Origin: Firmicutes bacterium UBA6226
GTDB lineage: Bacteria; Bacillota_A; Clostridia; Peptostreptococcales; Acidaminobacteraceae
DNA length: 9,057 nucleotides
Assembly (NCBI GenBank): GCA_002441045.1
Contig: DJWQ01000088.1
Location: forward strand, 1 to 9,057
Direction of reading: 5' to 3'
Each line of letters begins with the position of its first letter. Positions within the stretch are counted from its first letter, which is position 1. Position numbers and translations under genes: made by a program. Positions 1-9,057 of the stretch are shown one piece after another. Below the pieces are notes generated by a model. The model made no database searches. It saw only the letters and a program-made list of their open reading frames with translations, and had not been told where the DNA came from.

Positions 1-34
1 ATGCAATTCACAGGTTGGAATTAATGACAGAAAA

Positions 35-39
35 GGAAG
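35..39 (+). promoter_or_regulatory. Possible ribosome binding site for the TTG start at 47
   Basis: GGAAG lies 7 bases before TTG at 47. Its spacing favours this start over the ATG at 107, which has no purine-rich block at a useful distance. The evidence is weak, because the frame has no stop upstream inside the window. Confidence 0.35.
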
Positions 40-46
40 CCTTATA

Positions 47-3000
47 TTGCAATGTCTGGGGGGTAACGGACACTTGAAGAACAATACACCCATCCCATAT
101 GATTTGATGAATAAAGTCTCCACAAGGGTACGACATCTACTTATACGCGAGAAGATAGTAACTTGTGAACAGATAATAGAATTACATGAAAAAAGGTTGT
201 TCAATATTAAAGGGGTCGGCAGAACGACCGTATTTGATATCCAACGTTTACAGAAAAAAATCATTCAACGACACCCCCATTTAACAAAGTCATGTGAAAA
301 AGCTAACTGCGAAAAATCAAGAGACGTTGTTCGACTAGCGTTCACCGATGCGCACACAAATGGCTGCCCACTGAAGAATCTTGGCAGTTCTAACGCTGTG
401 GAGTCGTGTTTATTGACTTGCACCCTCCCTGCAGTATTTCAGGTACAATTTCCCAATTACAATTATGCATATGAAGATACACAAATTACTATAAGCAATC
501 TTGGAATTCCCTTAGACGATCTTAACCGACTCCGCACGATAGCGTTGTTCCCCAATGACTCAGCCGACTGTCTATTCCATGTTACTGTTGGGTATCTTCT
601 TAATGCTGAGATAAGTGAGGAAGCGCTTTCAATCATACTCATCCATTTAGCCCATGTCTCTGGATTTATAGACAAATCACAAATGATATTATCAACTGAA
701 TTTGTGCCAGATGTTGCAATATTTAATGATATACCCGCCAGCGTGTTTGCTGAACTCTCAATTTCGCAGTCCCCTATAGTCAACACTATAAACAATGAAG
801 TCGTAACGGCGATATGTGAGAATATTGGTGCATTGTCGGAGAGAGATATTATCTTGCGGCTAGGATTTTCGATAGAAGGATTAAAAGTTCTACGGCAACT
901 GTGGTGCTTCAGAGAACAAGCAATTGAACTGATGAAAAAATATTTAAAGGGTGTTCCTGTTGAAGCATACCGTGACTATGACCGCCTTATCGACGAATTC
1001 CTATTACCACTGGTAAAACATGAACGTGAAAGCAGAATATTGAAGGGGCGCCTAGGGTTACTTGACGGACAAAAATGGACGCTTGAAGAATTAGGAAGTC
1101 GCGAAAATATTACACGTGAACGAGTTAGGCAAATTGAAGAAAAGTACATTACAAAGATTCAAAAGCCAAAAGCTATTGAGCGCTTAGCTATGTTGTGGCA
1201 TACGGTTACAAATATTCTTTCGGCCGGTGGTGGTGTGTGTCGTGTGCAAGAAATAAATGAAACTCTTGGAAAGCGCTGGAGATGGCAAAATAACCCGCCT
1301 GACACAGCCCTAGCAAACTTAATCGGGTTATCTCCAGAATATGATGTCATTTGGGGGGATCCAATCCTCATCGTCATGCCAAAACACAAGTGTGTAACAT
1401 GCCAAAAAATCCGGTCAGAGATAGTAACAATCATTGGAGATCAAGCCGATGGAATTCTTTATCTATCTATTGCTACTGCAAAAATGATGGAGTTCTGTAA
1501 ACGTAAAACATACTGTAATAATATTTCTTCAATCGTTGAATTCTCAAATGGTTATTTAAACTATCTCGACAATGTTATCGAAGAAATTAATGTTGATGAT
1601 AGCGCACTATATACATCTAACGCATGGACAATGAAATATGGGAAGAAACGTACATTACTTGTGGAAGCAGTATTACGCAATAGTGGCCGCCCAATGCACT
1701 TTACAGAAGTTTGTGCTGAAATAAACAAAGATCGGCCTGAACATGACAAAATATCAGAGCGCAATGTATATGCTCGTATCGATTTTTCAAAGGAGCTATT
1801 ACTATGGGATCGGGGAACATTCATTCATCGTGATAATGTTTCTATTCCTTTTGATGTGATCACAAATATAGAGGACGATATAATTTGTCGACTTGATGGC
1901 AAAATTCCATACCTTTCGGTAAGTGGTATTTTTAAACAATATGAGGAGATATTGCTGAAGAATAATATTCCAAGTGAGAGTGCCCTTTATTCTTGCCTTA
2001 GAGAATCCAATAACACGAATTTACGATGCCCAGAATACCCATATATCATGAAAAGCGATGCCATTGGACCACGCCAACCGGTACAACTGGTAGTGGAAAA
2101 ATTTATATTGGAAAATGAAAATATTATAGAATATGAACAAATCAGAAATTATGCCGTTCAACAGCTTTGTATTAATGAAGCCTTATTTACGGCTGCCTAT
2201 TTTCCCAAAATTCCAAACATTTTTCGCGTAGATCGTGGCAAGTATATACACATGCAGCAAATTGGTATACAGAAAAAAAATTTGGATTCGATTATTCAAC
2301 ATCTTACAACACATCTCAGTTCATCAAGTCATGTTTCAGTAATACGGCTTTTTAAAGAAAAGCTAATTACCTGCAAGCAGCTCGGAATTGTATCCCCAAT
2401 GCTTCTGTTTTCAATATTGCAATTTTTCTACTCTGATCGATACGATCTTTCTCGATATCCACGCATAAACCTCTCAGGTGCCCTAGAAGAAAGTGGCCAT
2501 GCTACCGGTGTTGCCTCAGAAATAATCAGCTTCATTCTAAGAAAAAAAGCACCTTGCAGCTATCCTGAGTTACTTAAACATTTCGTTGATGATCTGGGTT
2601 ATGAACAGAACAGCGTTTATTATGCGATATACAGCTATAAGGATATTTTGCATTACAGCGCCAGCGTTGTCGTGCACTTCGAGAATCTTGGATGGACAGA
2701 TGGGAAACAAAAAATATTGGAATTAGTAGCTGCAAATTATATTAACGATCGTGAAAACGCCAATAAACCTTTCGGTCTTATTTCTCATTTTCATGATTAT
2801 TATTTTAATCAATTACCAGCGCTGCCTGATAACATTTGCTGGACACCAACACTCTTAGGTGAACTGTTATGTCGCAAAGAAAAATATAAGATCATAGGAT
2901 CACAGCGGAATGCTTTTGTCACGATTCCCAATTTATACCGCATCGAAACACTTGATGATCTTCTGTATTATATTCTCAACGCTGATTACTATGGTGCCGC

Positions 3001-3145
3001 AAATCTTAATGTATTTGTTTGTGACATGCGTGAAGCAGGTATCTTGAAGCAGAAGTTGACACCCATGATGTTGGGATCAGAGAGTCGTGTCGTTATAAAT
3101 GGAAATGTTGTCAAATTAGCGGGGATAAATGATAATGTTAAGTGA
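47..3145 (+). CDS. RNAP alpha-CTD-like / sigma-70 region 4-like protein with repeated winged-helix tail
   Basis: This is a 1032-residue protein, probably cytoplasmic and DNA-binding. Residues about 22-70 resemble the RNA polymerase alpha C-terminal domain, including a helix-hairpin-helix at 54-65 (IKGVGRTTVFDI). Residues about 330-380 match sigma-70 region 4: W344-TLEELG, then the recognition-helix signature TRERVRQIE at 356-364. Residues about 533-598 look like a HARE-HTH/RpoE-delta-type winged helix that ends in RGTFIHRDNV. Similar units may lie at about 610-670, 675-740, 816-882 and 885-965. No catalytic motif was seen, and the exact role is unknown; DNA recognition, operon regulation or interference with transcription are all possible. 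The start is uncertain. TTG at 47 has GGAAG 7 bases upstream, the first in-frame ATG is at 107 with no clear ribosome site, and the frame is open back to base 2, so the gene may begin outside the window. It overlaps the next gene by 11-17 bases. Confidence 0.8.
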   Translation: MQCLGGNGHLKNNTPIPYDLMNKVSTRVRHLLIREKIVTCEQIIELHEKRLFNIKGVGRTTVFDIQRLQKKIIQRHPHLTKSCEKANCEKSRDVVRLAFTDAHTNGCPLKNLGSSNAVESCLLTCTLPAVFQVQFPNYNYAYEDTQITISNLGIPLDDLNRLRTIALFPNDSADCLFHVTVGYLLNAEISEEALSIILIHLAHVSGFIDKSQMILSTEFVPDVAIFNDIPASVFAELSISQSPIVNTINNEVVTAICENIGALSERDIILRLGFSIEGLKVLRQLWCFREQAIELMKKYLKGVPVEAYRDYDRLIDEFLLPLVKHERESRILKGRLGLLDGQKWTLEELGSRENITRERVRQIEEKYITKIQKPKAIERLAMLWHTVTNILSAGGGVCRVQEINETLGKRWRWQNNPPDTALANLIGLSPEYDVIWGDPILIVMPKHKCVTCQKIRSEIVTIIGDQADGILYLSIATAKMMEFCKRKTYCNNISSIVEFSNGYLNYLDNVIEEINVDDSALYTSNAWTMKYGKKRTLLVEAVLRNSGRPMHFTEVCAEINKDRPEHDKISERNVYARIDFSKELLLWDRGTFIHRDNVSIPFDVITNIEDDIICRLDGKIPYLSVSGIFKQYEEILLKNNIPSESALYSCLRESNNTNLRCPEYPYIMKSDAIGPRQPVQLVVEKFILENENIIEYEQIRNYAVQQLCINEALFTAAYFPKIPNIFRVDRGKYIHMQQIGIQKKNLDSIIQHLTTHLSSSSHVSVIRLFKEKLITCKQLGIVSPMLLFSILQFFYSDRYDLSRYPRINLSGALEESGHATGVASEIISFILRKKAPCSYPELLKHFVDDLGYEQNSVYYAIYSYKDILHYSASVVVHFENLGWTDGKQKILELVAANYINDRENANKPFGLISHFHDYYFNQLPALPDNICWTPTLLGELLCRKEKYKIIGSQRNAFVTIPNLYRIETLDDLLYYILNADYYGAANLNVFVCDMREAGILKQKLTPMMLGSESRVVINGNVVKLAGINDNVK

Positions 3146-5255
3146 ACTTGAATTGTTGCCCGTCTATGACAGTGAATACTATGACTTAATTCGTGACTTG
3201 CAAGTCCCCTTGCTTTCACATGCAAAAGATTACCTGCGTGGTGTTGGCTTCTTCACATCAGGTTGGCTTCGTCTTGCCGGCCAAGGAATGGTAAAATTTG
3301 CGGAGAAAGGTGGCTCTGCGAGAATTGTTGTTTCCCCAAACCTCGATGAGGCCGATTGGGAGGCTCTCAAATTTGGTGAATCTGCAAGATACGATTTTAT
3401 TATACATGATATCCTTGAACGTAACGTTCATGATCTCGAGAAAACACTGGAAGATGATACACGTAATGCACTTGCATGGATGGTTGCCGATAGAACCCTT
3501 GAGTTTCGTTTTGCAATACCACGTAATCGCGATTCTCAAGGGGATTACCATGACAAGGTCGGCATTTTCATAGATGATTGTGGTGACAAAGTGGCAATTC
3601 ACGGTTCGCTGAACGATTCTATTAAGGCATCTTTAAATGGCGAAGCTTTTTCTGTTTTTAAGTCATGGGTATCCGGCCAATTGCCGTATGTTGAGATGCA
3701 CCACAAACGGCTTGAAACATTATGGGAAAATCAAAATAAACAATTTCGCGTGTGTCGTATACCTGATGACATCCGAGAACATTTTATAAAATTGCGGACC
3801 TCATCGAAAGCACCTTATAGAAGTCAGACTTCGTTCAACAAAGGTGTATCCTATCCATGTTGTCCCGTGAAACTTCATGATTATCAAGAAACCGCTATAA
3901 AAAAGTGGCGTGAAGCGAATTGTCGCGGCGTATTTGAAATGGCGACTGGGACGGGTAAAACGATTACTTCATTGGCTGCTGCAAGGTATGTCTATCAGGA
4001 TAATGGGCGGCTGGTTTTAATAATTCTCGTCCCTTATTTACACTTACTTCAACAATGGGGACAAAATTGCATACAGTTTGGTTTTGACCCAATTCTCTGT
4101 AGTAGCGAACACGGCCGATGGCAGATTGCTGTTAAATCGGCTATTCAGGATTTTAATATTGGCGTTCAAAGAAACATTTGTATTATTGCAGTACATAAAA
4201 CTGCGTCGACAGCAAAATTTGCTGCTGCGACGAGTCGACTTCCATCAAATAATACACTACTAATAGGTGATGAAGCGCATGGCCTTGGCGCATCACATTT
4301 ACGCAAAGCCTTGATAGAAAACGCCAACATGCGCCTCGGATTATCAGCCACACCACGCCGCTGGTTCGATGATGAAGGTACCGATATAATTTTTCGCTAT
4401 TTCGGCGCAACTTGCTTTGAGTTTTCTATAGATCAAGCAATTGGGAAATTTCTCACACCTTATGACTATTATCCCCAATTAGTAAATCTAACCGAAGAAG
4501 AAATCGAATATTATGATGTGTTAACTCAAAAAATCATTGCGATTTCTACTTCCGCAACATATGATTCAGAATCAAGTGATCGGTTACAAATGTTGCTTTT
4601 ACAACGCGCACGGATTATTTCATCGGCACAGCAAAAACTGCCGGCATTGCTTAGTTTGTTGCGACATATGCAAAAGGAACATCAACAATGTGGGGCAGAA
4701 GAACCAAACGGTATTCTCATTTACTGTTCACCGGGGGGACATAAAGATGTATTAAGAGCTGTCGCTGCACTTGGATTTCGCTGCCATGAGTTTGTTCACA
4801 ATGTAAGTTTGTCGGATCGGGAAAAACTTTTAGAGCAGTTCGATAACGGAGCAATTCAGGCGCTTGTTGCGATTAAGTGCCTTGATGAAGGTGTCGATGT
4901 GCCTTCTACCAAGACCGCTTTTATCCTTGCCAGTAGTACAAACCCTCGTGAATTCGTCCAACGTCGCGGACGGATACTACGTAAAGCAGCCGGAAAAACC
5001 GTTGCACATATCTACGATTTTCTGGTTTTTCCTCCTCTGGCGCGTTTATCATTAAGGCTTGGTTCTGATCTTGGAATACTACAACGCGAGATGCCCAGAT
5101 TTGTTGAGTTTGCATCATCTGCAACGAACCAATTCAGTGCGCGTGCTGTTGTGAGAGATATTCTTGACAGATTGCAAATGCTAAATCTTCTTGATGAGAA
5201 ACCTTGGGATGTTTATCATACCCTAAAAAAATGGGATTGGAGTACATATGAATAA
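3129..5255 (+). CDS. PLD-like nuclease / SF2 DEAH helicase fusion, Dnd restriction-type
   Basis: This is a 708-residue protein. The N-terminal part, about residues 20-205, is a PLD-superfamily domain: HDK at 141-143 followed by GSLNDS at 159-164 gives one HKD-type half-site (HxK...GSxN). PLD nucleases need two such sites, so dimerisation is expected. A superfamily 2 helicase follows: an HDYQ segment before motif I, Walker A ATGTGKT at 272-278, DEAH at 381-384, SAT at 406-408, the motif V region CLDEGVDVP, and motif VI QRRGRILR at 611-618. All key ATPase residues are intact. The layout resembles helicase-type restriction enzymes linked to DNA phosphorothioation loci, so its likely role is ATP-driven translocation and cleavage of unmodified DNA; the substrate is inferred. 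ATG at 3129 and ATG at 3135 are both possible starts: GGGG at 3121-3124 lies 4 bases before the first and 10 before the second. The gene overlaps its upstream neighbour by 11-17 bases and the next gene by 8. Confidence 0.9.
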   Translation: MIMLSELELLPVYDSEYYDLIRDLQVPLLSHAKDYLRGVGFFTSGWLRLAGQGMVKFAEKGGSARIVVSPNLDEADWEALKFGESARYDFIIHDILERNVHDLEKTLEDDTRNALAWMVADRTLEFRFAIPRNRDSQGDYHDKVGIFIDDCGDKVAIHGSLNDSIKASLNGEAFSVFKSWVSGQLPYVEMHHKRLETLWENQNKQFRVCRIPDDIREHFIKLRTSSKAPYRSQTSFNKGVSYPCCPVKLHDYQETAIKKWREANCRGVFEMATGTGKTITSLAAARYVYQDNGRLVLIILVPYLHLLQQWGQNCIQFGFDPILCSSEHGRWQIAVKSAIQDFNIGVQRNICIIAVHKTASTAKFAAATSRLPSNNTLLIGDEAHGLGASHLRKALIENANMRLGLSATPRRWFDDEGTDIIFRYFGATCFEFSIDQAIGKFLTPYDYYPQLVNLTEEEIEYYDVLTQKIIAISTSATYDSESSDRLQMLLLQRARIISSAQQKLPALLSLLRHMQKEHQQCGAEEPNGILIYCSPGGHKDVLRAVAALGFRCHEFVHNVSLSDREKLLEQFDNGAIQALVAIKCLDEGVDVPSTKTAFILASSTNPREFVQRRGRILRKAAGKTVAHIYDFLVFPPLARLSLRLGSDLGILQREMPRFVEFASSATNQFSARAVVRDILDRLQMLNLLDEKPWDVYHTLKKWDWSTYE
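5239..5242 (+). promoter_or_regulatory. Ribosome binding site for the 66-residue gene
   Basis: GGAG lies 5 bases before ATG 5248 and inside the last codons of the helicase gene. This supports translation of the small gene and its coupling to the helicase. Confidence 0.6.
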
Positions 5256-5448
5256 TGTTAATAAACCCTTTTTGTCCGACGTTAATGGACTAATAATTGA
5301 AAAGCTCAACGCATACCCGGCTGATGTGTGCAAATTAGCAATGCAGGCAATAAGTCTATCCCATGATTATGGTGAAGCAGCAGTTGCCGATCAACTCCAG
5401 TCTGTTTTACGGAAACTCGCTAAGCAAAAGGAGAGTGATGGCAGATGA
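5248..5448 (+). CDS. Small helical protein of a DNA modification operon
   Basis: This gene encodes 66 residues without a signal peptide, membrane segment or cysteine pair; a single Cys is visible. The composition suggests two or three amphipathic helices (about 12-22, 24-38 and 40-60) and a charged C-terminus rich in Lys. It is believed to be a real gene because it has a GGAG ribosome site, overlaps the helicase gene by 8 bases and shares an ATGA stop-start with the ATPase gene. In size and position it resembles proteins annotated as 'DNA modification system-associated small protein', but that match is from memory and was not tested. It could be an adaptor between the helicase-nuclease and the DndD-like ATPase, which is inference from position only. 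Confidence 0.75.
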   Translation: MNNVNKPFLSDVNGLIIEKLNAYPADVCKLAMQAISLSHDYGEAAVADQLQSVLRKLAKQKESDGR

Positions 5449-7478
5449 TACTTCATAAGATGATTATAGAGAATTTCCGGCAATTTCGTGGAAAACAAGA
5501 AATTGACTTTTTTATCCCAACACTACCTGACCAAAACGTGACAGTTGTTTTTGGTGAGAACGGCAGGGGCAAGACGGGATTGTTTAGAGCCATCATGTTT
5601 TGCCTCTTCGGGGAACGTCGACTTAGTCAGGATGGTGACGTTTCTCGTGAAGAGTTGCAACTAGTGAACGTGTCAGCACTTGAGGCGAATAAGAAAACAC
5701 CTGTCCGAACATCTGTTGAATTGGAGTTTTCGCACATGGGGCAAACCTATCGTTTGCGAAGAGCCATATTGGGAATGCTCGATGGAAAAAGAGTTATTGA
5801 AGAAGATGATGAGAAACGTCTTTCTGTGGTCACTATCGACGGGAATACCGAAATAATTAAGGTAACTGAAATTGATACGCTCATAGACAGTATTCTTGAT
5901 AGGCGTGTCAAAGATTATTTTTTATTCGATGGCGAGAAAATTGAACGTTTGACGCGTGCCAACATTGAACAGCGACGAGAAATAAGTGCCGGTATTAGAA
6001 ACTTACTCAATGTTGATGCCCTTGAGATAGCAATAAGGGCATTAGGGCGTGTTGCGAAAACCCTTGAAAATGAATTGGCCAATACCTCAAATGAAGAATT
6101 GTCAAGACTCCTCAAAAGGATTGGTGATAATGAGGATGGCCAAATCCTCTTGCGTAAGCAGCTTGATGAATTGGCAGATGAGGTGCAACTTGCGCGGCAA
6201 GAGATTGATAAGACCGACAAAGAATTGAAAAAATATGAAGAGATTCGCGATTTATTAGAGCGACGTAAAAAGTTAGAACAAGAGCTAAAAGAATATGAAC
6301 AACAAGCTGAAGATGTACTTAAGGAGATGCACAATCTTGTCTGTAAAACAGCATCTCTCATTATGTCTTCTACAGTGATTTCTGTATTCGAGCACATAGA
6401 AAGACAAAAGCAAAAAGGTGAAATTCCGTCTGAAATTCGCCGTGATTTGATTGAACGAATACTTACTGACAATAAGTGTATATGTGGGCGAGGCGTTCTT
6501 GAAGACACAAAAGCCCATGATCATATTTTATCATGGCAGAAACGTACAAGTGACGTTGCAACTCAAGATGCGGCGCTTAACTTATGGCGTCACTTGAGCG
6601 AAGTGCGCAATCACTTTAGTGATGATGCAGATCTGGTAGAAAAACGGTTGCAGCAATACGGAAATATCAGCAGTGCAATAGCCAATATCAATCGGGGCCT
6701 TGAAAACGTACGTATCCAGATCGGCACGTCAGAACGGCAGGATGCCACTAAATTGGATGAACATCGAAAAAAACTTCAGGATAGCATTGTTACTCTTGAG
6801 GCAGACGCGCGTAACGCACAAACACAATTAGACCAGCTAAAGCAGGAGAATGAGAGGTTACGCGCACTACTAAAGGAAGAGAAGCTCAAGGTTGGACGAA
6901 ATGATGAACTGTCGCGGCGCTCTCTCTTAGCACGTGACACTAAGGATGCCCTCAATGACGTTCATAATCAATTCACACGTGAAATAAAAGACTTAATTGG
7001 ACAATCGGCCACACAACACTTTCATGCGCTACTGGATAAAGAAGGAAGGGAAAATCTTCGGACTATAATCGTCAACGATGATTATTCGTTGCAAGTTTTA
7101 GATCGATACAAGAAACCTTTTCTTGCAAATATATCCGCAGGACAAAGACAAATCATGTCGATTTCATTCATTCTTGCCTTAGCATGCGCTGCTTCCCAAG
7201 GTGGTAAAATCGAAATTCCGTTGTTTATGGATACACCTTTTGGTCGTTTATCTTTTGATCACCGTCAGAACCTTATCAATCAAATACCTCTTTTTGCATC
7301 GCAATGGATTCTCCTCGCAACGGATACCGAATTTCGTCGTCAGGAAGCACGCCTTTTGAAAAGCAGTGGTAAATGGGGGAAGTTTTTTATTTTGCATGCA
7401 ACTGATGATGGTAATACAACGATTGAGGAACAGAACATCGTTTCAGCACTAACCGTTCTTCGTGACGAGGAGGATTAA
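5445..7478 (+). CDS. dndD: DndD-family SMC/Rad50-like ATPase
   Basis: This 677-residue protein has split ABC ATPase halves around a coiled coil. The N-terminus (IENFRQFRG) is typical of the RecF/Rad50/DndD group. Walker A GENGRGKT is at 37-44. Long charged heptad-like segments cover about 202-299 and 391-492, and between them CICGR (Cys345, Cys347) marks the hinge or zinc-hook position. The signature motif is ISAGQRQ at 563-569. The Walker B region IPLFMDTPFGRL has Asp596 and is followed by FDHRQNL and ILLATDTEF; the DTPxGRL...HR and TDTE pattern is what separates DndD from ordinary SMC proteins. DndD proteins act with DndC and DndE in DNA phosphorothioation and supply ATPase/nickase activity, but neither partner is in this window. 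ATG 5445 is the first possible start after an in-frame stop at 5436. A GGAG lies 11 bases upstream, which is rather far, and the ATGA overlap suggests translational coupling to the small gene. Confidence 0.88.
   Translation: MILHKMIIENFRQFRGKQEIDFFIPTLPDQNVTVVFGENGRGKTGLFRAIMFCLFGERRLSQDGDVSREELQLVNVSALEANKKTPVRTSVELEFSHMGQTYRLRRAILGMLDGKRVIEEDDEKRLSVVTIDGNTEIIKVTEIDTLIDSILDRRVKDYFLFDGEKIERLTRANIEQRREISAGIRNLLNVDALEIAIRALGRVAKTLENELANTSNEELSRLLKRIGDNEDGQILLRKQLDELADEVQLARQEIDKTDKELKKYEEIRDLLERRKKLEQELKEYEQQAEDVLKEMHNLVCKTASLIMSSTVISVFEHIERQKQKGEIPSEIRRDLIERILTDNKCICGRGVLEDTKAHDHILSWQKRTSDVATQDAALNLWRHLSEVRNHFSDDADLVEKRLQQYGNISSAIANINRGLENVRIQIGTSERQDATKLDEHRKKLQDSIVTLEADARNAQTQLDQLKQENERLRALLKEEKLKVGRNDELSRRSLLARDTKDALNDVHNQFTREIKDLIGQSATQHFHALLDKEGRENLRTIIVNDDYSLQVLDRYKKPFLANISAGQRQIMSISFILALACAASQGGKIEIPLFMDTPFGRLSFDHRQNLINQIPLFASQWILLATDTEFRRQEARLLKSSGKWGKFFILHATDDGNTTIEEQNIVSALTVLRDEED
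7467..7474 (+). promoter_or_regulatory. Strong ribosome binding site for the 154-residue gene
   Basis: GAGGAGGA ends 7 bases before ATG 7482. It also encodes the acidic C-terminal end of the DndD-like protein. It is the best Shine-Dalgarno match among the gene starts in the window and fixes the start at 7482 rather than the ATG at 7488. Confidence 0.75.
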
Positions 7479-7481
7479 TCA

Positions 7482-7946
7482 ATGAAGATGGATGGAAAGA
7501 TACGTGTAGCCACTGATCCTACCTTTAAGGAGCTTTACAACAATATGAAAAGCTATGGCGCTATTGGTGATTCCCATGAATTGTTTTTTGTGTGTGCTTG
7601 CCTTGGTTATCGTAAAGGTAAATATACGCCAATTAGAAAGCGTGATGACCGCTTCTGGTCAAGTACGATTACGCCACCCGAATGGGCTTGTTATTATGCC
7701 ATGATGTTAGAAAAAAATTCTTTCGATTACGAAAAAGTGTCAGAAGACAAGGACGTGCTTGCTGTCATAGAGGGCTACGCTAATGCTGGTATTTCCATCT
7801 TGATTGATGAATTCTTGAGCGATTACTTGTTGTCGAATTCAAAAGGTTCTGATCCTCAACTTGACCCAACTTCTTGTAAGGAACTTCCTAAACAGTTTAT
7901 CCACTTTATTTTTGAGCAGTCTGAACAGGAGACATGGGATAACTGA
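7482..7946 (+). CDS. Dnd system-associated protein 4-like protein
   Basis: This 154-residue soluble protein has no signal peptide or membrane span. The central part FFVCACLGYRKGKYTPI (about 36-52), followed by a Trp/Phe-rich stretch (FWSSTITPPEWA), resembles the small 'dnd system-associated protein 4' group, which is found beside dndBCDE genes. The C-terminal half (about 85-115) is predicted to be helical. No catalytic motif is evident and its molecular role is unknown. It lies 3 bases after the ATPase gene, has a very strong ribosome site, and its TGA overlaps the ATG of the radical SAM gene by one base. It therefore probably belongs to the same complex or pathway as both neighbours. The family assignment is from memory of a conserved motif and was not tested by search. 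Confidence 0.75.
   Translation: MKMDGKIRVATDPTFKELYNNMKSYGAIGDSHELFFVCACLGYRKGKYTPIRKRDDRFWSSTITPPEWACYYAMMLEKNSFDYEKVSEDKDVLAVIEGYANAGISILIDEFLSDYLLSNSKGSDPQLDPTSCKELPKQFIHFIFEQSEQETWDN
7936..7939 (+). promoter_or_regulatory. Weak ribosome binding site for the radical SAM gene
   Basis: GGGA lies 6 bases before ATG 7946. The match is weak, so reinitiation through the TGATG stop-start overlap is likely to contribute to translation. Confidence 0.4.
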
Positions 7947-9057
7947 TGCGGAATATCTTATTAGTTGAGCCGTCCTACAAAAGTAAATATCCTCCGCTGG
8001 GTTTAATGAAAATTTCAGCATATCATAAAAGATTAAACGACAGAGTCGTCTTTGTGAAAGGATGTGTTCCTGAAAAGCTAAAAGAACGATGGGATCGCGT
8101 ATACGTAAGTTCTCTTTTTACCTACTATTGGCGGGATACTATCAAGGCGATTAAATATTATCAAGATAGTGTCCCACGGCGATCAGATGTTATCGTAGGA
8201 GGTGTTTTAGCAACACTTCTTCGTGATGATTTAGAATTGGAAACCGGTGCCACCGTGATATCGGGATTGCTTGATACACCTAGTGCTCTTGACTCCGGTA
8301 ATAAGATCAGAATTGATACACTTACGCCAGATTACAGCATCCTTGAGAAGACTAATTATACTTACGAACTTCAAAACTGTTATATCGGGTATGCGACACG
8401 TGGATGTCCAAATGGCTGTACGTTTTGTGCCGTCCATATAATAGAACCAGAGTTCAACGGTTATTTACCCCTCCGCAAACAGGTTCAGCAAATCGAAGAG
8501 CTTTATGGTGAAAAACGTAACTTGATCTTATTGGATAACAATGTTCTGGCGTCAAAACGATTCAACGATATAATAAAAGATATTAAATCATTAGGATTTG
8601 GAAAGGGTGCGACATATACTTATAAGAATAAATCAGGACGTACAAGTACGGTGAATCGTTATGTCGATTTCAACCAGGGATTGGATTCCCGTTTGCTAAC
8701 AAATGAAAAAATGGCCTTGTTGAGCGAAATCGCAATTAAGCCTGTACGAATAGCATTTGATGATATTCGCCTGCGCGGGTTGTATGAAAAGAAAATCAGG
8801 TTAGCAGCGAAGCATGATTTTAAATACTTGTCGAATTACATTCTCTACAACTTTCACGATAGACCTGAAGAGTTTTATGATCGATTGAAGATTAACCTTG
8901 ATCTTAACGAAGAATTAGGATTGCACATATTTTCATTCCCTATGCGATATGTAGATTTGCAGAGCAAGAATCGTCTATCGAGTACACCGGGTAATATTGG
9001 TGAACATTGGAATGCAAAATACCTTCGTGCAATCCAATGTGTATTGATTAGGACACG
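7946..9057 (+). CDS. Radical SAM protein with N-terminal Rossmann-like domain (3' end outside the window)
   Basis: 370 codons are visible before the window ends with the frame still open. Residues 1-130 resemble the N-terminal domain of B12-binding-type radical SAM enzymes (NILLVEPSYKSKYPPLGL, later VGGVLATLL and TPDYSIL), but no DxHxxG cobalamin motif is seen. The TIM-barrel domain starts near residue 145 with YATRGCPNGCTFCAV; Cys154, Cys158 and Cys161 form the CxxxCxxC site for a 4Fe-4S cluster that cleaves S-adenosylmethionine. Later segments include LILLDNN, YILYNFHDRPEEFYDRL, FSFPMRYVDL and HWNAKYLRAIQ, which recall a widespread radical SAM family of unknown reaction. The substrate is unknown. 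From its place in the operon, a DNA base or backbone modification, or maturation of a partner protein, is a reasonable inference. The start is set by the one-base TGATG overlap with the previous gene. Confidence 0.88.
   Translation, partial: MRNILLVEPSYKSKYPPLGLMKISAYHKRLNDRVVFVKGCVPEKLKERWDRVYVSSLFTYYWRDTIKAIKYYQDSVPRRSDVIVGGVLATLLRDDLELETGATVISGLLDTPSALDSGNKIRIDTLTPDYSILEKTNYTYELQNCYIGYATRGCPNGCTFCAVHIIEPEFNGYLPLRKQVQQIEELYGEKRNLILLDNNVLASKRFNDIIKDIKSLGFGKGATYTYKNKSGRTSTVNRYVDFNQGLDSRLLTNEKMALLSEIAIKPVRIAFDDIRLRGLYEKKIRLAAKHDFKYLSNYILYNFHDRPEEFYDRLKINLDLNEELGLHIFSFPMRYVDLQSKNRLSSTPGNIGEHWNAKYLRAIQCVLIRT

What the first reader, a model, noticed from the sequence alone, without database searches (positions are those of the whole stretch)
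47..9057. Six-gene Dnd-related operon with a radical SAM enzyme and no DndB, DndC or DndE in view
A DndD-like ATPase, a PLD-helicase restriction-type protein and a dnd-associated-4-like protein sit in one coupled operon. The position where the sulfur-transfer modification genes might be expected is taken by a radical SAM enzyme. This could be a distinct DNA modification and restriction system, or a Dnd variant whose remaining genes lie past the right edge.
Basis: partly seen in the sequence, partly recalled or inferred. Interest (0 to 1): 0.75.

Follow-up and report, generated by a model that had tools for sequence, protein, structure and literature searches.

The report
Pbe defence operon with radical-SAM enzyme
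This is a bacterial antivirus-type gene set of a known kind (PbeABCD) in which a radical-chemistry enzyme sits where a DNA-marking enzyme is often found, which points to a DNA mark that may be new and still has to be tested in the laboratory.

Summary
The six genes are real and form a conserved operon. Genes 2-5 are a PbeABCD cassette (the "CxC ABC-ATPase/DndE" system), not an ordinary Dnd core. Gene 5 has a DndE fold, so "no DndE" is wrong. Gene 1 (alpha-CTD plus sigma-region-4 protein) recurs in other Pbe loci; it runs off the left edge. Gene 6, a radical SAM enzyme with a cobalamin-binding-like domain, is cut by the right edge.

The same order occurs in three further genomes (rSAM 80, 79 and 51% identical to the window's). 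L104 and L135 continue past the operon with no Dnd or methylase gene recognised. DndC is not found above its cut-off in any of the three genomes (two positive controls ring). In the tree, 28 Pbe-linked rSAMs (4 seen directly, 24 by shared contig length) fall in one clade that holds no row linked to another system.

Elsewhere Pbe cassettes sit beside Dnd genes, a methylase (once exactly in the rSAM position), a PAPS-reductase/desulfurase set, or nothing recognised. So rSAM most likely supplies a non-phosphorothioate self-mark, or acts on another component. The operon is well supported; the chemistry is inferred. In ten literature searches I saw no rSAM gene described in a Pbe locus.

The parts
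2..3145 (+). gene 1, DNA-binding regulator/sensor-like protein (RNA polymerase alpha-CTD-like plus sigma-70 region 4), 5' end off the window
   Evidence: Pfam Sigma70_r4 E 2.8e-8 over cut-off, RNA_pol_A_CTD E 0.0025 below cut-off; alpha-CTD over cut-off in L104. Orthologue upstream of pbeA in L104, L105, L135 (44, 45, 29% id); proteins of like make-up or name lie directly upstream of pbeA in L119, L247, L252 and at the far end of the cassette in L123, L253.
119..247 (+). alpha-CTD-like (helix-hairpin-helix) domain of gene 1
   Evidence: Pfam PF03118 residues 40-82, below cut-off; coordinates
1022..1162 (+). sigma-70 region 4-like HTH of gene 1
   Evidence: Pfam PF04545 residues 341-387; coordinates
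3129..5255 (+). pbeA: HKD/PLD nuclease fused to SF2 helicase
   Evidence: PADLOC PDLC02707 E 4.4e-221 over residues 4-672; TIGR04095 E 2e-141, below its cut-off; GTGKT, DEAH, SAT motifs
3549..3617 (+). HxK...GSxN phospholipase-D-type motif of pbeA
   Evidence: residues 141-163 HDKVGIFIDDCGDKVAIHGSLND; the strict HxKx4D pattern is not met
5248..5448 (+). pbeB-like small protein, 66 aa
   Evidence: position and length as PbeB of H. jeotgali (66 aa, PMC6459918); homologue 63% id in L104, small ORFs at the same place in L105 and L135; no relevant family match
5445..7478 (+). pbeC: CxC-type ABC ATPase, DndD relative
   Evidence: PADLOC PDLC02730 E 1.8e-171; TIGR03185 188 bits, below its cut-off of 246
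5553..5576 (+). Walker A of pbeC (GENGRGKT)
6477..6485 (+). CxC zinc-hook motif of pbeC (CIC, residues 345-347)
7482..7946 (+). pbeD: DndE-fold protein (dnd-associated-4-like), 154 aa
7946..9057 (+). radical SAM enzyme with cobalamin-binding-like N-terminal domain, 3' end off the window (about 96 residues missing)
   Evidence: Pfam Radical_SAM 31.3 bits over cut-off, B12-binding 15.6 bits below cut-off; full-length near-copy P0001, 466 aa, 99% id; fold
8108..8203 (+). SxL-(27)-GG stretch of the cobalamin-binding-like domain
   Evidence: present in 20 of 26 aligned homologues, DxHxxG in 0 of 26
8405..8428 (+). CX3CX2C cluster motif of the radical SAM enzyme
   Evidence: invariant in alignment A1

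Best explanation
The window holds a lineage of the PbeABCD (CxC ABC-ATPase/DndE) anti-invader system in which a radical SAM enzyme replaces phosphorothioation or methylation as the modification module. Proposed mechanism: PbeC and PbeD (DndE fold) scan DNA and mark or recognise target sites. The rSAM enzyme, which carries one conserved cluster motif and a cobalamin-binding-like domain, installs a carbon-centred modification on host DNA at those sites. PbeA (HKD nuclease plus SF2 helicase) blocks or cuts DNA that lacks the mark. The small PbeB-like protein restrains or licenses PbeA. Gene 1 binds DNA or RNA polymerase and controls or triggers the set. Shown: gene identities, predicted folds, operon conservation, single clade, parallel divergence of rSAM and PbeC, no DndC or DndB above cut-off in three genomes. 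Inferred: that the substrate is DNA, the kind of chemistry, and the antiviral role of this variant.
For: Same six genes in the same order in L104, L105 and L135; L104 and L135 are read past the operon and show no Dnd, methylase or GHKL gene there, while the L105 contig ends just after the rSAM. 40 of 120 listed rSAM homologues share the exact longest-contig length with a listed PbeC or PbeD homologue; 1.0 expected by shifted lengths, maximum 6. DndC above cut-off in 0 of 3 rSAM-Pbe genomes against 2 of 2 control genomes; DndB 0 of 3. In Haloprofundus a DNA methyltransferase directly follows pbeD, where rSAM sits here; other Pbe loci carry Dnd genes, methylases or a PAPS-reductase set. Family members outside Pbe sit with DndB/DpdB-like DGQHR, HerA-like, NurA-like and GHKL genes.
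Against: No activity was or could be measured. 4 of 16 Pbe loci fetched without rSAM as bait show no modification gene nearby, so Pbe need not carry one. The nearest folds (AprD4, MgmA, MiaB, TsrM) act on sugar, protein, RNA or tryptophan, not DNA (fold matches; substrates from entry titles and recall). Cobalamin binding is unproven: Pfam below cut-off, no DxHxxG, SxL-GG in 20 of 26.
Confidence: 0.5

Rival explanations
1. The rSAM modifies a protein of the system (the small PbeB-like protein, PbeA or gene 1) and so licenses or arms it; DNA carries no new mark.
For: Closest folds include MgmA, a protein methylase. A 66-aa protein is encoded in the operon. A different rSAM in a conflict system was proposed to modify a peptide effector (PMC7159879, passage read).
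Against: PbeB-like small genes occur in Pbe loci without rSAM, so it is not an rSAM-specific substrate. The rSAM family also recurs with HerA-like, NurA-like, GHKL and DGQHR proteins; whether a small protein is encoded there was not tested.
Confidence: 0.2
2. The rSAM is an effector that makes a nucleotide analogue or other small inhibitor, as viperins do, added to an otherwise solitary Pbe cassette.
For: Prokaryotic viperins are known rSAM defence enzymes (PMC12926258, passage read). Some Pbe loci have no modification gene in view.
Confidence: 0.12
3. The rSAM modifies RNA (tRNA or rRNA), for example to shut down or spare translation during attack.
For: MiaB and RimO are among the best fold matches.
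Against: The MiaB/RimO second cluster needs three N-terminal cysteines (recalled); none is invariant here, and only the CX3CX2C cysteines are. The partners are DNA-handling proteins.
Confidence: 0.1
4. An ordinary Dnd/Pbe phosphorothioation cluster with a passenger rSAM; sulfur-transfer genes lie elsewhere in the genome.
For: In G310 a Pbe locus and dndC lie on different contigs, so distant pairing is possible.
Against: DndC over cut-off in 0 of 3 rSAM-Pbe genomes. The rSAM gene overlaps pbeD by one base in the window and L105, and the rSAM is in one clade and parallel with PbeC.
Confidence: 0.08

Closest known systems
PbeABCD with DndCDEA (Xiong et al. 2019, PMC6459918; passages read)
   Same: Four genes in the same order with like sizes (PbeB 66 aa, PbeD 152 aa there; 66 and 154 aa here); HKD-helicase PbeA and CxC ATPase PbeC matched by PADLOC models
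   Different: No dndCDEA; a radical SAM gene is coupled after pbeD; a gene-1 protein precedes pbeA
CxC ABC-ATPase/DndE systems (Rakesh, Aravind, Krishnan 2024, PMC10853773; outline, passages and sections 16 and 24 read)
   Same: CxC hook in PbeC, DndE-fold PbeD, HKD-SF2 PbeA, small protein; the authors already suggest that modifications other than PT may pair with this core, and report cytosine methylases
   Different: The two mentions of radical SAM there concern DndC only; no rSAM gene is described as a partner in the parts read
Pbe with a DNA methylase, e.g. Haloprofundus pMHR1-1 and Aurantiacibacter
   Same: Methylase lies directly after pbeD in Haloprofundus, the position of rSAM here; before pbeA in Aurantiacibacter
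   Different: Annotated as a DNA methyltransferase, not radical SAM
Cobalamin-binding-type radical SAM enzymes and kin (MgmA 9ccb, AprD4 6fd2, TsrM 6wtf, OxsB 5ul4)
   Different: 13-15% identity; known substrates are not DNA (recalled)
Prokaryotic viperin
   Same: Radical SAM defence enzyme

Membership tests
PbeABCD / CxC ABC-ATPase system | PbeA: HKD nuclease domain fused to SF2 helicase | tested here: met
   PDLC02707 E 4e-221, residues 4-672; HDK...GSLN and helicase motifs; strict HxKx4D spacing not met
PbeABCD / CxC ABC-ATPase system | PbeB: small protein between pbeA and pbeC | tested here: inconclusive
   66-aa gene in that place, conserved in L104, L105, L135; no family model matched, sequence relation to the H. 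jeotgali PbeB not tested
PbeABCD / CxC ABC-ATPase system | PbeC: ABC ATPase with a CxC zinc hook | tested here: met
   PDLC02730 E 2e-171; single CxC at residues 345-347
PbeABCD / CxC ABC-ATPase system | PbeD: DndE-fold protein | tested here: met
PT-dependent PbeABCD (Xiong et al.) | dndCDEA phosphorothioation genes in the genome | tested here: not met
   tested in relatives only: dndC over cut-off in 0 of 3 genomes with this operon; 2 of 2 controls positive. The window's own genome is not held
PbeABCD / CxC ABC-ATPase system | antiviral activity | not testable with these tools
   needs a plaque assay
DndABCDE modification system | DndC sulfurtransferase and a canonical DndD | tested here: not met
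   no DndC over cut-off in 3 genomes with the operon nor among the six proteins; gene 4 below the DndD cut-off, 188 of 246 bits, PbeC models score far higher
Radical SAM superfamily | CX3CX2C motif in a radical SAM barrel | tested here: met
   Pfam 31.3 bits over cut-off 29.5; motif in 26 of 26; fold
Cobalamin-dependent radical SAM enzymes | cobalamin-binding N-terminal domain | tested here: inconclusive
   fold matches cobalamin-binding domains; Pfam 15.6 of 32.1 bits; SxL-GG in 20 of 26, DxHxxG in 0 of 26
Methylthiotransferases (MiaB/RimO) | second cluster on three N-terminal cysteines | tested here: not met
   at most two cysteines in the first 120 residues in 26 of 26 and none invariant

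The most novel reading that the evidence does not exclude
A restriction-modification-like system whose self-mark is made by a radical SAM, possibly cobalamin-dependent, enzyme acting on DNA: a new class of DNA modification (carbon methylation or a larger radical rearrangement of base or sugar), guided by the PbeC-PbeD (DndE) scanner. The same enzyme family would then serve as the DNA-modifying part of at least two further cassettes (DGQHR-rSAM-GHKL and NurA/HerA-GHKL-rSAM) for which I found no description.
Probability: 0.4. Interest if true: 0.92.

Novelty: new variant of a known kind. Interest (0 to 1): 0.72.

Why it matters
It is open whether the CxC/DndE core serves only phosphorothioation; Rakesh et al. 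raise the question explicitly (PMC10853773 section 24). This lineage gives a clean test case: a complete Pbe cassette, no dndC over cut-off in three genomes, and one coupled candidate enzyme. If the rSAM marks DNA, it would add a chemistry to restriction-modification. If it does not, it shows how Pbe works without a DNA-modification partner.

Tried and rejected
Gene next to the right edge: relatives of the rSAM at 43-51% identity are often followed by a GHKL ATPase, so I first expected one past the window's edge. L104 and L135 have none, and the L105 contig ends 272 bases after the rSAM, so this was dropped for the Pbe-linked clade. 'Dnd genes beyond the right edge' was rejected for L104 and L135 by the same reading and by Pfam scans of their neighbours (four short ORFs of 60-114 aa there were not scanned).

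The first survey seemed to speak against the finding: in 0 of 85 loci (80 from genome contigs, 5 from plasmids; 52 with a clear rSAM match) did BLAST find a Pbe gene. One search showed one weak gene-1 match (43 bits) in L032.

Contig-length test: 'same longest contig' is not adjacency; lists are cut at 120 rows; two rSAM rows share the length 10654, of which one at most can pair with the one PbeC row of that length. I left the 10654 and 3296 matches out of the distance test. Parallel divergence can also arise from plain vertical descent.

Tree: two long branches outside the Pbe clade (L148, L106) have unsure places. Eleven rows inside the Pbe clade have unknown context, among them a four-row subclade. 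A search with one of its members in 349 genomes of the phylum of G628 and 194 of the phylum of G627 gave five genomes, all of other system types. A class search around G624 (196 genomes) gave three loci, none Pbe-linked; one of them, L149, also has an 854-aa helicase with weak PbeA likeness (24.5%, E 3e-13).

Searches without result: rSAM against PDB sequences, PbeD against PDB sequences and Pfam (chance-level matches only), P0001 in viral contigs, window DNA in plasmids. Residues 409-466 of the rSAM are barely covered by fold matches. Krishnan et al. 2020 on ABC ATPases (DOI recalled) is not held, so it was not read. L257 was dropped from the Pbe tally because it lacks a PbeC-like gene and has only the helicase half of PbeA. 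Of 27 plasmid records with PbeA I read 8; among them L249 has only a PbeC fragment and L252 a PbeA annotated without its N-terminal half. The PLSDB gene table is incomplete, so an unlisted gene may be missed there.

Not-in-print statement: rests on the listings of ten searches in an open-licence library and on passages or sections of ten opened papers; subscription papers were mostly not covered.

Checks added at the review of this report: Pfam scans 128 and 129. They bore out the absence of methylase or Dnd genes beside L104 and L135 and the PAPS-reductase set of L255; in L256 they confirmed only the desulfurase-like gene, not DndC.
Full report
What is in the window. Six same-strand reading frames fill it with junctions of -17, -8, -4, +3 and -1 bases, the pattern of a translationally coupled operon. 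The first frame is open at the left edge and its homologues L104 and L105 have further N-terminal sequence, so the start at 47 given in the finding is probably not the true start. The last is cut at residue 370; the public near-copy P0001 is 466 residues long and 99% identical over the shared part.

Gene 1 carries a sigma-70 region 4 and an alpha-CTD-like domain. Proteins with both domains lie directly upstream of pbeA in L119 and at the far end of the cassette in L123. RefSeq names 'sigma factor-like helix-turn-helix DNA-binding protein' stand upstream of pbeA in Ruegeria and Lactiplantibacillus and after the DndE-like gene in Aurantiacibacter. It is thus a recurrent Pbe partner, not special to this variant. 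It diverges fastest of the five proteins compared: 44, 45 and 29% identity to L104, L105 and L135, against 72-76, 70-74 and 48-54% for PbeA, PbeC and PbeD and 80, 79 and 51% for rSAM, as expected for a sensor or specificity part (inference).

Is the six-gene set conserved? A search of 395 genomes from the phylum of the Desulfobacterales MAG G001 gave 8 genomes with the enzyme (E up to 1e-40); two, G360 (L104) and G171 (L105), have gene 1, pbeA, pbeB, pbeC, pbeD and rSAM in the same order; the other six are of other types or without a recognised partner. A search of 242 genomes from the order of G360 again gave 8; besides G360, one more, G582 (L135), has the six-gene set, with rSAM 51% identical to the window's; the other six do not. 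Desulfogranum marinum (G002) belongs to that order sample. L104 runs 3.6 kb past the rSAM and L135 about 9.3 kb; their neighbours are WYL, SnoaL-like, transposase-like HTH and serine-proteinase genes (L104) and transport, housekeeping and toxin-antitoxin-like genes (L135), with no Dnd, methylase or GHKL gene (four ORFs of 60-114 aa were not scanned). In genomes G360, G171 and G582, dndC over its cut-off is found in 0 of 3 (one weak 24.5-bit match on another contig of G582), while two control genomes give 648 and 668 bits; DndB is found in 0 of 3. Methylases elsewhere in these genomes were not searched for.

Breadth. Among the 120 best rSAM homologues, 40 share the exact length of their longest contig with a listed PbeC (120 rows) or PbeD (113 rows with a length) homologue; with lengths shifted by 1-200 the mean is 1.0 and the maximum 6 (inputs). 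For rows on contigs of 8 kb or more it is 29 of 64. Source names in the three lists (not only among the 40) include Syntrophales, Syntrophobacteraceae, Desulfobulbus, Desulfocapsa, Bacillota, Armatimonadota and Actinomycetes. One association, kept over long divergence, is the simplest reading.

What fills this place in other Pbe loci? I fetched 16 loci with pbeA and at least part of pbeC without using rSAM as bait: 5, 8 of the 27 plasmid records, and 3 of the 4 genomes. Beside them lie rSAM in 2 (L104, L105); Dnd genes in 5 (L120 with dndC; L247, L249, L251 by annotation; L256 by a DndD-like and a desulfurase-like gene only, dndC unconfirmed); a DNA methylase in 3 (L123 by Pfam, L246 and L253 by annotation); a PAPS-reductase/cysteine-desulfurase-like/DUF4007 set in 2 (L250 by annotation, L255 by Pfam); and nothing recognised in 4 (L119, whose contig ends soon after pbeD, L248, L252, L254). 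In Haloprofundus (L246) the methylase directly follows pbeD, the rSAM's position here. In none of the 16 did BLAST or the annotation show rSAM together with Dnd genes or a methylase. The four loci without a partner count against a strict need for one.

The enzyme's relatives outside Pbe. In 52 rSAM loci with a clear match (47 from genome contigs, 5 from plasmids), a gene of one cluster, whose two scanned members match HATPase (GHKL), lies within six genes in 38. One arrangement is DGQHR (DndB/DpdB-like), rSAM, GHKL, often with a SNF2/DEAD-type helicase and ParB-like genes. Another is NurA-like, HerA-like, GHKL, rSAM; Marinitoga camini virus 1 carries rSAM beside genes annotated HerA and NurA-type exonuclease. 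So the family keeps company with DNA-handling and defence-like genes, which supports a DNA-centred role but does not prove it.

Judgement. That this is a conserved rSAM variant of PbeABCD I hold at about 0.95. That the rSAM supplies the system's modification in place of PT or methylation I hold at about 0.5; that it marks DNA by radical chemistry at about 0.4. Two papers in the library hold both PbeABCD and radical SAM, and in both the radical SAM passages concern the PT reaction or DndC. In the listings of the ten literature searches and the passages I opened, I saw no rSAM gene described in a Pbe locus.

Noticed in passing
L001-L005, L012-L014, L023, L045, L109; without DGQHR L009, L010: A recurrent cassette of a DndB/DpdB-like DGQHR protein, a radical SAM enzyme and a GHKL ATPase, often beside a SNF2/DEAD-type helicase, ParB-like proteins and a roughly 139-aa protein that looks like a PD-(D/E)XK nuclease by eye. 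PADLOC gives only a DpdB match for the DGQHR protein and a weak candidate-family match (PDC-M38A) for one ParB-like protein of L003.
   Followed up: partly
L017, L018, L021, L033, L086, L106, L110, L138, L150, L160, L161: A second cassette: NurA-like, HerA-like, GHKL ATPase and a radical SAM enzyme, often a longer form (about 600-660 aa), in several phyla and on a gut phage-like contig. In L017 PADLOC gives weak matches to mad8 (HerA-like) and C3a156 (rSAM).
   Followed up: partly
L034:11602-14235, L037, L038: A protein of the alpha-CTD plus sigma-region-4 make-up (Pfam on the L034 member), like gene 1 of the window, lies directly downstream of the radical SAM gene of the HerA-type cassette.
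   Followed up: partly
L168-L241 (viral contigs): 505 viral stretches encode a relative of the enzyme; most of the 80 kept are matched over only about 300 residues at low identity. A cluster that looks like C5 DNA methylases by eye occurs within five genes in 16 of 71 loci examined. No background rate was measured.
   Followed up: no
L087:8001-11827 (Marinitoga camini virus 1): A phage carries a radical SAM homologue next to genes annotated HerA and a NurA-type exonuclease, on the opposite strand.
   Followed up: no
L250:6345-17404 and L255:2698-13405: Pbe cassettes beside a PAPS-reductase-like protein, a cysteine-desulfurase-like protein, a DUF4007 protein and a large (ATP-binding in L250) protein, perhaps a further sulfur-based partner set.
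   Followed up: partly
L116 (G338:C2:152606-154585): The search row for this PbeC-like match reports two in-frame TGA codons, although one search shows a 660-aa open frame there on the larger locus L123.
   Followed up: no
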